Of a DNA stretch of 64,000 nucleotides, positions 4,953-48,992 are shown piece after piece. The notes below the pieces were generated by a model. It made no database searches and had not been told where the DNA came from. It saw only the letters and a program-made list of their open reading frames with translations. How positions within the stretch are numbered: the stretch's first letter is position 1; every line of letters begins with the position of its first letter. A program made the position numbers and the translations under genes. The stretch is from Acidobacteria subdivision 2 bacterium RH1 MAG20. Its GTDB lineage: Bacteria > Acidobacteriota > Terriglobia > Terriglobales > Acidobacteriaceae. The stretch lies in NCBI GenBank assembly GCA_002197545.1, contig NFUO01000081.1:62001-126000 (forward strand), in the 5' to 3' direction.

Positions 4953-5013
4953 CACGTCATCTCGACCGAAGGCGGCGCTTTTGCCGCCGCAGTGGAGAGG
5001 CCCTTGTATTTGC
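4953..5013 (+). repeat. REP-like dispersed element, copy 1
   Basis: This copy begins CACGTCATCTCGACCG and ends with AGTGGAGAGGCCCTTGTATTT, enclosing a GGCGGC...GCCGCC hairpin. Three related copies are at 27421-27532 (reverse), 37240-37300 (reverse) and 48923-48992 (forward). The outer boundaries are conserved while the inner hairpin differs in sequence. This copy lies between two genes and encodes nothing. Confidence 0.75.
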
Positions 5014-19894: not shown

Positions 19895-21505
19895 TTGAAA
19901 ACTGTGACTGCCACCGACAACCCCATCCCGCCCATTCCTTCGACTCCACCCCGCTTCGGCTGGCTTCGTCCTTCGCATAAACACTCTGCGCTCTCGGCGA
20001 CCGTCCTCCTCGCTGTCTTTGCGCTTGTCTCCCGCGTCGTCGGCCTCGTCCGAGACATGTACATTGCCTTCACCTTCGGTGCAGGCCCCGGTACGGATGC
20101 GTACAACGTAGCGTTCCAACTGCCCGACCTCATCAACTATCTCCTCATCGGCGGCGCGGCCTCCATCAGCTTCGTCACCATCCTCAGCCGCTACCGCGAA
20201 GCCAACCAGCACGAAGAAGGCGACCGCGCCCTCTCTGTCATCCTCACTACCATGCTTCTTGTCCTCGGCGGCGCCATCCTCCTCGCCGAGTTTGCTGTTC
20301 CGCTCTACACCCATCTCTACTTCCCCAACAGCCCCGCCGAAGCTGCGCTCTGCACTTTCATGACGCGCATCCTGCTGCCCGGTCAGCTCTTCTTCTTCGC
20401 CGGTGGAGTCCTCGCAGCGGTTGCTCTCGTCCGCAAACAGTTCACTTATCAGGCGGTCTCGCCACTTATCTATACACTTGGCATTATCGTCGGCGGCGTG
20501 CTTCTCTCCCATTCCATTGGCATCCCGTCACTTGCCTGGGGAGCGCTAGCCGGTGCGTTCGCCGGTCCCTTCCTCGTCAACGCCTACGCCGCACACCGCG
20601 CCGGAGTCCACTATCGTCCCATTCTCGACCTCAAAAACCCCGGTCTGCACTCCTGGGTTCGCATGTCTCTCCCGCTTATGCTCGGGGTCACTGTGGTCTT
20701 CATGGACACCATCATTCTGACCTGGTTCGCCAAGCATGGCACCGGCGACATCTCGCGTCTCATGTACGCCAAACGCCTCTTCACCGCTCCCATGGCGATT
20801 ATTGGTCAGGCTGCCGGGGCTGCCTCGCTGCCATTCTTTGCCTCTCTCTACAGTCGCCATCTCTTCTCGGACTATGCCTCGGCCGTCAACCGTGCCGTTA
20901 CCCGCATCCTCTCCGTTGCCATCATGCTCTCCGCCGCCATGTTCGCCCTTGCTCAGCCGGGCGTAGACCTCGTTTTTCGTCGCGGCTCTTTCAACCGGGC
21001 GGATGCAGGTCTCACCGCACTCTACTTCGCCATCTTCGCCGTCTCATTGGCTCTGTGGGCCTCGCAGGCTATCTATTCCCGCGCTTTCTTCGCCGCCGGC
21101 GAAACCTTCGTCCCCATGCGTGCCGGAACCATCATCACCGTCGTCTCCATCCCTTGCTACTGGTTCCTCCACCAGCGCTTCGGGGTCATCGGACTGGCCT
21201 GGGCCTCTAACCTCGCCATCCTTGTCCACACGGTTACGTTGGCGATCCTTCTGCACCGCCGTCGCATGGTTTCGCTTGCCGGCCTCGACCGTCCCGAACT
21301 CGCCCGAGCTATTTTGGCTGCCATTGTCAGCCTCGCCGGAGTCACCCTCCTGCTCCACGCTCTACCCCACACTCATATCCAGACCTACATTGGCGATCTC
21401 ACCGCGCTCACCGTCGGCGGCATCCTCTGGGCAGTTCTCTGCTATGGGATTCTCCGCCTCACCGGCTCAACCCTTCCCCAACAACTCAGCTCCCGCCGCG
21501 CCTGA
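19895..21505 (+). CDS. murJ: MurJ lipid II flippase
   Basis: 536 residues and about 14 membrane helices. It is a MOP-superfamily transporter that flips undecaprenyl-PP-linked peptidoglycan precursors. The early motif S-R-V-V-G-L-V-R-D-M-Y-I-A-F-T-F-G-A-G is at about 45-63, followed by D-A-Y-N-V-A-F-Q-L-P-D. The first residues form a Pro-rich segment, so translation could begin slightly later, but no in-frame ATG closer to the first helix is obvious. It is monocistronic, ending before the 21541 element. Confidence 0.9.
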   Translation: MKTVTATDNPIPPIPSTPPRFGWLRPSHKHSALSATVLLAVFALVSRVVGLVRDMYIAFTFGAGPGTDAYNVAFQLPDLINYLLIGGAASISFVTILSRYREANQHEEGDRALSVILTTMLLVLGGAILLAEFAVPLYTHLYFPNSPAEAALCTFMTRILLPGQLFFFAGGVLAAVALVRKQFTYQAVSPLIYTLGIIVGGVLLSHSIGIPSLAWGALAGAFAGPFLVNAYAAHRAGVHYRPILDLKNPGLHSWVRMSLPLMLGVTVVFMDTIILTWFAKHGTGDISRLMYAKRLFTAPMAIIGQAAGAASLPFFASLYSRHLFSDYASAVNRAVTRILSVAIMLSAAMFALAQPGVDLVFRRGSFNRADAGLTALYFAIFAVSLALWASQAIYSRAFFAAGETFVPMRAGTIITVVSIPCYWFLHQRFGVIGLAWASNLAILVHTVTLAILLHRRRMVSLAGLDRPELARAILAAIVSLAGVTLLLHALPHTHIQTYIGDLTALTVGGILWAVLCYGILRLTGSTLPQQLSSRRA

Positions 21506-21614
21506 TGCCTGTCAAGCGTCCATACCGGTCAACTAACACAAAATAAATGGATTAGAGATTGCCGATTAGTTCCAGTCCATCCGTTACACTAGAATTAGTG
21601 GAAAAATAAAACGA

Positions 21615-21638
21615 AGGCCCAGCGACAATGCCGGGCCT
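21615..21638 (-). terminator. Terminator-like hairpin within element A
   Basis: On the minus strand AGGCCC-ggcattgtcgct-GGGCCT is followed by CGTTTTATTTTT, a good intrinsic-terminator shape in the direction of iscX transcription. On the plus strand the tail is only CTCTTTTA, which gives weak support for murJ termination. Confidence 0.55.
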
Positions 21639-21725
21639 AACTCTTTTAGAAAGAAGACTTTGAATCCTAAAGTATCTGGAATGAAGACTTTACCCAAGAT
21701 CAAAATTTGTAAGTCATTGAATCGA

Positions 21726-21746
21726 GATACTTTATCAAAAAGTATC
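21726..21746. repeat. Hairpin with ATCAA loop, copy 1
   Basis: GATACTTT-atcaa-AAAGTATC is a perfect eight-base-pair stem. The same ATCAA loop with a different arm (GACGCTTT/AAAGCGTC) occurs at 26461-26483. It sits in the GC-rich end of element A. Confidence 0.6.
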
Positions 21747-21800
21747 CGGGGGGGTACTCTACAGAAAGCAAGTTCCAATGTCGGATAACAACCGGCTTAT

Positions 21801-22019
21801 TTACTTGGCGTCCTCATATTCCTCATGCCAGGCTTTTTGTATAGCCTCGAGAATTCCCTCATTCGATTTGGCTGGATCTCCGGTAAACCCCGGCAGCTCG
21901 GTCACATACCTGTGCAAGTCGGTAAACCGGACCGTATAAGGGTCGATCTCCGGAAACTTCTCCTGCAATTGAATCCCAATCTCTTCCGAATCTGTCCAGT
22001 CAATCTCACGCGGCATCAT
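21801..22019 (-). CDS. iscX: Fe-S cluster assembly protein IscX
   Basis: 72 residues (71 if the second ATG is used; AGGAG lies 4 or 7 bases before them). The family pattern is clear: D-W-T-D-S-E-E-I-G at 7-15, D-P-Y-T-V-R-F-T-D-L-H-R-Y-V near 26-39, and N-E-G-I-L-E-A-I-Q-K-A-W near the end. IscX is a small acidic partner of IscS that modulates iron supply for Fe-S assembly. It is usually in the isc operon, but here it stands alone, divergent from rpsU. Confidence 0.9.
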   Translation of the reverse strand: MMPREIDWTDSEEIGIQLQEKFPEIDPYTVRFTDLHRYVTELPGFTGDPAKSNEGILEAIQKAWHEEYEDAK

Positions 22020-27011: not shown

Positions 27012-27040
27012 AGTGTATCGTGTTCTTTGGGGAGGGTCAA
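27012..27040 (-). promoter_or_regulatory. Promoter for rplU-rpmA
   Basis: On the minus strand TTGACC (-35), 17 bases and TACACT (-10) give a near-consensus sigma-70 promoter. It predicts a leader of about 190 nt before the rplU ATG, in which I see no clear attenuator. Confidence 0.65.
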
Positions 27041-27063: not shown

Positions 27064-27300
27064 TTGCTCCTTTCAGGGAGTACACCCCTGGGGGTATCCT
27101 GCGCGTAAACTCCTTTGATTCAATAGTTTATGGTTAAGATATAACTTCCAAAACATTCATTCTAAATGAGTTACTGCTAAAATCGTCTTTCTAAAAGGGT
27201 TAGACCCAGCGTCGCCGCTGGGCGTCGGTTTATTCCTCTACTAACTTTAGTATAGCGAATGGAGTAGAACTAATCGGCAACTTCTATTTAGTTTGTTATG
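27064..27300. other. Element B of an inverted pair of ~225-bp intergenic sequences
   Basis: Homologous to element A (21541-21766) in reverse orientation. The block 27239-27280 matches A's first block in about four of five positions. The central hairpin CCCAGCG-tcgc-CGCTGGG (27205-27222) keeps A's position but not its sequence. The G/C-rich end (ACCCCTGGGGGT, near 27084) corresponds to A's GGGGGGG tract. It lies within the gene-free stretch 26817-27578, upstream of the rplU promoter, so it is not part of the rplU leader. Function unknown. Confidence 0.65.
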
Positions 27301-27420
27301 TGTGAGTTAGGTAGTTTTTTGGCTTGACAGACGTGTGATCGCGATAAGAACCTGTCTAAAAAACTATGGAATTCAGGTGCAAGGGGTTCATCAAACGGCG
27401 TAAAAAGCAACGATGAAATT

Positions 27421-27532
27421 GAAATAAGGGGTCGCTCCACTACGGCGGCAAAAGCGCCACCTTGCACCCCAAATGAGCAAGTGCGCTCGCTGGGGCCCCG
27501 CGCCTTCGGTCGAGATGACGTGGCTTTTTGTG
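27421..27532 (-). repeat. REP-like dispersed element, copy 2, with insertion
   Basis: This reverse-orientation copy carries the conserved ends (AAATAAGGGGTC...CCTTCGGTCGAGATGACGTGG), but about 42 bases are inserted beside the hairpin (CTTGCACCCCAAATGAGCAAG...). It lies immediately before the glgX remnant. The inserted bases match the end of the DinB gene at 44836-44855 in two ten-base segments. Confidence 0.65.
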
Positions 27533-37239: not shown

Positions 37240-37300
37240 GAAATACAAGGGGTCTCTCCACTGCGGCGGCAAAAGCGCCGCCTTCGGTCGAGATGGCGCG
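37240..37300 (-). repeat. REP-like dispersed element, copy 3
   Basis: This reverse-orientation copy begins AAATACAAGGGGTCTCTCCACT and ends GGTCGAGATGGCGCG, enclosing GGCGGC-aaaagc-GCCGCC. It lies between the methyltransferase and glycosyltransferase genes. Confidence 0.75.
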
Positions 37301-48922: not shown

Positions 48923-48992
48923 CACGTCATCTCGACCGGAGCAGCGCATAGTTTCATCGTGCGCTGCGAAGTGGAGAGACCCCTGTATTTGC
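48923..48992 (+). repeat. REP-like dispersed element, copy 4
   Basis: The ends CACGTCATCTCGACCG and GTGGAGAGACCCCTGTATTT are conserved. The inner hairpin is GCAGCGCA...TGCGCTGC, unlike the GGCGGC hairpin of copies 1 and 3. It lies between mntH and the convergent CBS gene. Confidence 0.75.

What the first reader, a model, noticed from the sequence alone, without database searches (positions are those of the whole stretch)
21541..21766. Inverted pair of homologous ~225-bp intergenic elements (A here, B at 27064-27300)
Two gene-free stretches 5.5 kb apart align over their whole length when one is reversed. A 42-base block (21559-21600 against 27239-27280) matches at about four of five positions by hand count. 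A central hairpin keeps its place while the paired bases differ (AGGCCC/GGGCCT against CCCAGCG/CGCTGGG), and both copies end in a G/C-rich tract. Conserved shape with changed sequence suggests structured RNA or a stable mobile-like repeat. I cannot assign it to a known RNA family.
Basis: partly seen in the sequence, partly recalled or inferred. Interest (0 to 1): 0.72.

Follow-up and report, generated by a model that had tools for sequence, protein, structure and literature searches.

The report
Repeated terminator element behind bacterial genes
The two matching stretches are copies of a DNA element of about 250 bases that recurs dozens of times in many genomes of a group of soil bacteria, usually right behind a gene's stop signal, where it probably ends that gene's transcript.

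Summary
In detail: A (21510-21760, +) and B (27078-27329, -) are homologous over about 250 bp and belong to a large dispersed family. With a broad model, 91 of 397 genomes sampled from the order had a match; one chromosome has 88. All 16 hit genomes of a 297-genome phylum sample were already known from the order sample.

Anatomy is fixed: TGTCAAG end, TGGC-N5-AGTT-N13-TANANT (-10-like), GC hairpin with compensatory changes, three ~27-bp units (third inverted), G/C tract. The element has polarity: in 92 of 130 copies the gene on the tract side points into it, its stop codon a median 14 bp away. In that gene's direction the hairpin has a terminator-type T tail in 98 of 114 copies, a median 142 nt after the stop. 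At A that gene is iscX; B lies upstream of rplU instead.

Best explanation: a dispersed, stop-codon-anchored 3'-end (terminator) cassette. Genomes share positions more than chance, yet same-position copies of the more distant pair are no more alike than random ones, so copies are homogenised or turn over. What the units and promoter-like block do, and what spreads it, are unknown. No Rfam match; RAYT-driven REP not supported, though not excluded. Transcription was not observed.

The parts
21510..21760 (+). Copy A of the element (TGTCAAG end at left, G/C tract at right)
   Evidence: Profile hit 21505-21760, 158.8 bits; model R1 core 21557-21693, 107.3 bits; alignment with B
21510..21516 (+). 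Conserved end box TGTCAAG of A
   Evidence: Near-invariant in the consensus of 104 copies; sequence
21559..21571 (+). Conserved block TTGCCGATTAGTT of A (family form TGGC-N5-AGTT)
   Evidence: AGTT invariant in 19 of 19 seed copies; consensus
21585..21590 (+). -10-like box TACACT of A (family form TANANT)
   Evidence: T, A, A and T positions invariant in 19 of 19 seed copies; the sigma-70 scan reports no promoter here
21615..21638 (-). Terminator-like hairpin of A, in the direction of iscX, with tail TCGTTTTATT
   Evidence: Scan (2 terminator-like sites in the region, 0.5 expected); family covariation
21636..21661 (+). Unit 1 of A
   Evidence: Direct repeat D1; consensus
21666..21691 (+). Unit 2 of A
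   Evidence: Direct repeat D1; consensus
21709..21735 (-). Unit 3 of A, inverted relative to unit 2
   Evidence: Read from the sequence; reverse-strand self-hits of the profile at model 157-242 in several other copies
21742..21757 (.). G/C tract of A (GTATCCGGGGGGGTAC)
   Evidence: Sequence; consensus
21804..22019 (-). iscX, the gene that points into A
   Evidence: TIGR03412, 98.6 bits against cut-off 40.4
27078..27329 (-). Copy B of the element
   Evidence: Profile hit 27337-27076, 162.6 bits; model R1 core 27148-27282, 110.2 bits
27268..27280 (-). Conserved block TTGCCGATTAGTT of B
   Evidence: Sequence; alignment with A
27249..27254 (-). -10-like box TATACT of B
   Evidence: Sequence; seed alignment
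27205..27222 (+). Hairpin of B (CCCAGCG/CGCTGGG)
   Evidence: Sequence. The scan's terminator-like site here is weak and at chance level: 1 found, 0.7 expected
27179..27204 (-). Unit 1 of B
   Evidence: Register of inverted pair I2
27148..27176 (-). Unit 2 of B
   Evidence: Alignment with A
27105..27133 (+). Unit 3 of B, inverted relative to unit 2
   Evidence: Read from the sequence
27080..27099 (.). G/C tract of B (GTACACCCCTGGGGGTATCC)
   Evidence: Sequence

Best explanation
A and B are two copies of a dispersed, polar intergenic repeat of about 250 bp, found in Acidobacteriota of the Granulicella/Edaphobacter group, that acts as a ready-made 3'-end module. Shown: many copies per genome; fixed anatomy; [quoted passage not shown] in that gene's direction comes a stretch of about 120-140 nt with three 27-bp units, then a covarying GC hairpin with a T tail. 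Inferred: the hairpin terminates that gene's transcription and insulates it from what lies beyond. Inferred: the TANANT block beyond the hairpin starts short counter-directed transcripts or binds a factor, and the units bind a protein. Inferred: copies spread, or are homogenised, within each genome over long times by an unknown mechanism. B, like 36 of 130 copies analysed, has a gene on the tract side that points away, so the module is not strictly a 3' UTR.
For: Family: 49, 73 and 66 matches in G002, G003, G004 with model R1; 91 of 397 genomes of the order with R2. Polarity: right gene points in for 92 of 130 copies, median 14 bp, 46 of 92 within -5 to +16 bp; in 48 convergent cases the right gap is the shorter in 39, medians 26 and 199.5 bp, p 5e-6. 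T tail: 98 of 114 copies in the gene's direction against 40 of 114 the other way. Compensatory pairing. Stop to stem median 142 nt, quartiles 126-175, n 76. At the murJ-iscX junction KBS 89 lacks the element and has a plain terminator-like site in the same direction.
Against: No transcript data. In 36 of 130 copies, B among them, the tract-side gene points away. The hairpin of B is a weak terminator by the scan, and RYN_7 has neither element nor terminator-like site at murJ-iscX. A terminator alone does not need 250 conserved bases. G.U against A.C counts do not tell the RNA strand once composition is controlled. Gene calls are my own codon-usage ORF calls, not annotation.
Confidence: 0.68

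Rival explanations
1. A family of small RNA genes: RNA polymerase starts near the TANANT box in the element's own orientation and makes a hairpin RNA of about 50 nt, or a longer one through the units.
For: TANANT and the AGTT block are the most constrained positions besides the end box; hairpin covariation; 40 of 114 copies also have a T tail in this direction.
Against: The sigma-70 scan finds no promoter in A or inside B; hairpin loop columns carry little information; no Rfam match at gathering score; the better T tail lies on the other strand.
Confidence: 0.12
2. A non-autonomous mobile element (REP-, REPIN- or MITE-like), moved in trans by a Y1 or other transposase, without a host function; its place behind stop codons reflects where insertion is tolerated or targeted.
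For: Dispersed copies with genome-specific sequences; the murJ-iscX site is without element in two relatives; 3 of 11 Y1 transposase loci have a copy within about 1 kb, where I estimate about 0.3 by chance; E. coli REPs also lie close to stop codons (PMC12306157, passages).
Against: G137 has 88 copies and no Y1 match; no terminal inverted repeats seen; no near-identical copies (highest identity 0.91, mostly about 0.7); G103 and G109 have 48 and 49 copies in what looks by eye like the same order and scores; position sharing between genera.
Confidence: 0.35
3. A chromosome-organising site: the inverted units bind a protein that structures the chromosome or borders transcription units, and the terminator is secondary.
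For: Spacing more even than random: CV 0.73 in G137 (p 0.001) and 0.75 in G139 (p 0.008), against about 0.98; units 2 and 3 are inverted copies of each other without a convincing RNA fold.
Against: A third genome, G103, is not significant (CV 0.79, p 0.058). Orientation along G137 (34+/20- on one arm, 8+/24- on the other, counted) is no more than following gene direction would be expected to give. No binding protein was sought or found.
Confidence: 0.15

Closest known systems
REP / BIME / REPIN elements (E. coli, Pseudomonas)
   Same: High-copy extragenic repeats; a large share of E. coli REPs lie within 20 nt of a stop codon and can act on translation there (PMC12306157, passages); REPINs pair two inverted units (PMC3116915, passages), as units 2 and 3 do.
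   Different: About 250 bp with end box, -10-like box, T-tailed hairpin and three units rather than a 20-40 nt palindrome; no Y1 transposase found in the genome richest in copies.
Rho-independent terminators
   Same: GC stem followed by a T tail, 98 of 114 copies in the gene's direction.
   Different: An ordinary terminator is a short local hairpin; here it is one part of a homologous 250-bp repeat, a median 142 nt behind the stop, where most stop-terminator distances are said to be under 50 bp (PMC4824070, passage).
STAR elements of staphylococci
   Same: Interspersed intergenic repeats in different loci in each species (PMC3532100, abstract).
   Different: STAR elements are direct repeats that expand and contract at a locus; this family has one fixed architecture and polarity.
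BOX, Correia and similar modular repeats
   Same: Modular dispersed intergenic repeats, some with promoter or terminator activity (recalled, not from a call; PMC3049150 on BOX and RUP seen only in a listing).
   Different: No terminal inverted repeats seen here; tight anchoring to stop codons.

Membership tests
REP / REPIN | Many extragenic copies per genome | tested here: met
   49-88 matches per genome in G002, G003, G004, G137, G139; 2 of 130 copies overlap a called ORF
REP / REPIN | Short palindrome of about 14-40 nt as the repeated unit | tested here: not met
   The conserved unit is about 250 bp; the hairpin is one part of it
REP / REPIN | Association with a RAYT (Y1) transposase | tested here: inconclusive
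   Absent in G137 with 88 copies; 3 of 11 Y1 loci elsewhere have a copy within about 1 kb; beside the Y1 genes of L234 and L238 there is, by eye, a different REP-like hairpin
MITE | Terminal inverted repeats | tested here: not met
   Ends TGTCAAGCCCC and GGGGTACCCC are not inverted copies of each other (by eye)
MITE | Target site duplication at a clean empty site | not tested
   The murJ-iscX sites without element are too diverged to show the junction; no congeneric filled/empty pair was examined
Intrinsic terminator | GC-rich stem directly followed by a T-rich tail | tested here: met
   98 of 114 copies with a stem, out of 130 examined; A by scan; B weak, at chance level
Intrinsic terminator | RNA 3' ends at the hairpin | not testable with these tools
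   No RNA data
Known structured RNA family (Rfam 15) | Score above a family's gathering threshold | tested here: not met
   None in the window; best weak matches far below threshold
New structured RNA | Covariation-supported structure beyond the terminator hairpin | tested here: inconclusive
   The single strongest pair, 86-94 in CTATACTGGATATAG, lies outside the hairpin (z 6.4), but 12 of 22063 pairs exceed +4 and 10 lie below -4, so single pairs are near noise; units 2-3 mean fold z about -0.8

The most novel reading that the evidence does not exclude
A genome-wide system of dispersed, stop-codon-anchored insulator cassettes: each copy combines a terminator, a counter-directed promoter and inverted binding sites for a protein not yet known. 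The copies are spaced more evenly than chance along the chromosome and evolve in concert within each genome, so that they border transcription units or chromosome domains.
Probability: 0.18. Interest if true: 0.85.

Novelty: new variant of a known kind. Interest (0 to 1): 0.55.

Why it matters
Dispersed intergenic repeats are known mainly from a few well-studied bacteria. This one is large, polar, tied to stop codons and present in about a quarter of sampled genomes of a soil bacterial order, with shared positions but sequences that drift together within each genome. If it ends transcripts, it is a portable 3'-end part that I found in no annotation or RNA library searched here. If its units bind a protein, it is a lead to an unknown chromosome or transcription factor. 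It also offers a test case for how repeats spread without an obvious transposase.

Tried and rejected
Led nowhere: a single-protein search for relatives with MurJ (the alignment of MurJ homologues then worked); a plasmid search with A, no match at E 0.01; a protein alignment of 83 right neighbours that I then did not use.

Considered and rejected: units as an RNA stem (mean fold z about -0.8). The G.U/A.C imbalance in the hairpin (40 against 117) as proof of the RNA strand: equal to what permutation gives (87 and 204 observed, 88 and 209 expected). The strand difference in folding energy: the left part, with no structure, shows an even stronger difference, so it is composition. Raw mutual information was dominated by differences between genomes and replaced. 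TTGACA at the far end as an outward -35: no -10 at the right distance in copies looked at by eye. Sigma-54 reading of TGGC-N5-AGTT: the -12 GC is not conserved (by eye; consensus recalled).

Rows dropped and limits: of 170 distinct profile hits, some of them partial or reverse-strand self-hits, 130 (score over 60, near full length) were used for context and 104 (score over 100) were aligned, 100 of them in G002-G004. Model R2 was built from 76 rows that include some copies fetched twice. 20 of 83 tightly placed right neighbours were named. In one search, 18 neighbour pairs between genomes passed: 14 right-right in the same direction (13 pointing in, 1 away), 3 left-left (one with opposite directions) and 1 left-right; the pair L094/L155 (53% identity, 243 of 296 and 484 residues) is doubtful. 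Per-genome candidates were capped (8 to 150), so copy numbers are floors, and family, order and phylum searches used stricter filters. For G137, 87 of 88 rows were listed and used for spacing.

Full report
What was checked. A and the reverse complement of B align with score 176 against a maximum of 58 in 500 shuffles; the 42-base block matches at 34 of 42. The window has no Rfam match at gathering score. No whole genome is held for the window.

Finding the family. Homologues of the window's MurJ carry names from Acidobacteriaceae and Acidobacteriota where a source names them. An alignment of them brought loci from an uncultured Granulicella MAG, an Edaphobacter MAG (RYN_7), Acidobacteriaceae KBS 89 and Granulicella sp. 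L60, genomes G001-G004. A plain DNA search with A matched 4 of 4 genomes at E up to 1, the match in G001 at 0.14 only. A covariance model from 19 copies gave 1, 49, 73 and 66 matches in G001-G004 at E up to 0.01 and matches in 5 of 60 genomes of the family sample. A broader model gave matches at E up to 0.001 in 23 of 41 relatives (10 of these 23 with 29 or more copies, several with one), 91 of 397 genomes of the order and 16 of 297 of the phylum; all 16 are among the 91. G137 has 88 copies and G139 63.

Anatomy. In the orientation of A the consensus of 104 aligned copies shows TGTCAAGCCCC; an A/C-rich stretch; TGGC-N5-AGTT; 13 bases; TANANT; an A-rich stretch; a GC hairpin; units TAACTCGTTTAGAAAGAATATTTTGG and GTAACCCATTTGTTATGAATATTTTGC; a third unit; a G tract ending in GGTACCCC. 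The third unit resembles the second in reverse: 11 copies gave reverse-strand profile hits over that region (model 157-242). More distant genomes such as G035 and G044 keep the order with other letters. Shorter variants with fewer parts occur.

The hairpin. With permutation inside genomes, hairpin pairs 115-133, 119-129 and 121-127 are among the five strongest of 22063 column pairs, and 967 cells form Watson-Crick pairs against 917 (sd 7.2) when partners are permuted, 0 of 500 permutations reaching it. Folding z is about -4 on either strand. Direction comes from the tail: 98 of 114 copies have at least 5 T in 8 bases after the stem in the direction of the tract-side gene, 40 of 114 in the other. 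At A the site is AGGCCCGGC..GCTGGGCCT TCGTTTTATT, in the direction of iscX. At B the scan finds only a weak stem, at chance level. A count of G.U against A.C mispairs seemed to name a strand but equals what composition gives; it is not used.

Polarity. Of 130 near-full copies the tract-side gene points into the element in 92, away in 36, and was not called in 2; 2 of 130 overlap a called ORF. The stop codon lies a median 14 bp from the tract end, 46 of 92 within -5 to +16 bp. In the 48 convergent cases the tract-side gap is the shorter in 39 (medians 26 and 199.5 bp). From stop to stem is a median 142 nt (n 76). TAG is the stop in 35 of 69 adjacent genes against 71 of 223 others in the same loci (p 0.006). 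The 20 adjacent genes scanned include TypA, MreB, MurG, adenosine deaminase, KdpC and IscX and no transposase; 3 of 20 had no match.

Evolution. Mean identity within genomes is 0.72, 0.68 and 0.67 (G003, G004, G002), between G003 and G004 0.59, between G002 and G003 0.65. Genomes share positions: 13 same-direction right-neighbour pairs among G002-G004 (6 G003-G004, 5 G002-G003, 2 G002-G004), where random placement over an assumed 2000 gene ends would give about 1.5. Copies at shared positions are no more alike than random ones for G003-G004 (percentiles 0.36, 0.47, 0.93, 0.03, 0.40, 0.72); for the closer pair G002-G003 there may be some memory (0.98, 0.78, 0.42, 0.14, 0.97); G002-G004 gave 0.69 and 0.81. 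So copies are homogenised within genomes, or positions are refilled. The pair G103/G109 has 48 and 49 copies which by eye pair up in order and score, so movement is not recent there. In KBS 89 and RYN_7 murJ and iscX are adjacent without the element; KBS 89 has a terminator-like site there in the direction of iscX, RYN_7 none.

Placement. Spacing is more even than random in G137 and G139 (p 0.001, 0.008) and not significantly so in G103 (p 0.058). In G137 the orientation differs between the two arms set by GC skew (34+/20- and 8+/24-, counted), as expected if copies follow gene direction.

Mover. Y1 transposase matches were found in 5 of 6 genomes and not in G137. Of 11 Y1 loci 3 have a copy within about 1 kb, more than the roughly 0.3 I would expect. 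In two of the three (L234, L238) a different REP-like hairpin stands by the Y1 gene, seen by eye. I hold RAYT movement unsupported, not excluded.

Literature. Searches of the open PMC library (listings only) showed no paper on such a family. PMC12306157 lists Granulicella aggregans in a table of predicted REPs (passage), which may include some of these hairpins, although T-tailed hairpins were set aside there as terminators (passage). Subscription journals and preprints are not covered.

Verdict. The terminator reading is well supported from sequence for the family and for A, less so for B. The roles of the units, the promoter-like block and the G tract, and the way the family spreads, are open.

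Noticed in passing
window 4955-4971, 27504-27520, 37282-37298, 48925-48941: A second, unrelated dispersed repeat (CGTCATCTCGACCGAAG and flanks): 6 matches with up to 3 mismatches where 0.38 are expected; longer pairs 4926-4971/48896-48941 and 4939-5003/37250-37314. One copy lies 0.2 kb beyond B.
   Followed up: partly
window 27012-27040 (-): A sigma-70-like site TTGACC-17-TACACT between the G/C tract of B and rplU could be the rplU promoter; one such site is near the chance expectation of 0.9.
   Followed up: no
L234 and L238, around 1200-2000: Y1 transposase genes in G103 and G035 stand beside hairpins of the type GGCACGGCTTCAGCCGTGCC, which look like true REPs of these bacteria (by eye).
   Followed up: no
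L064, L068, L074, L080, L083, L085, L146-L151: In G035 many copies are preceded by another repeat (..ATCATGGCTGGCACCAAGCCGAAGGC..) that ends right at TGTCAAG.
   Followed up: no
L006, L015, L019, L021, L032: Shorter relatives of the element with fewer units, a G-rich tract and a different hairpin part, e.g. GAAGTCCA-N4-TAAAGT..ACTTTG then GGGGAGGGG.
   Followed up: no
L009, L035 and others: Adjacent genes use TAG more often than others (35 of 69 against 71 of 223), and several read TAG directly into GGGTACCCC.
   Followed up: partly
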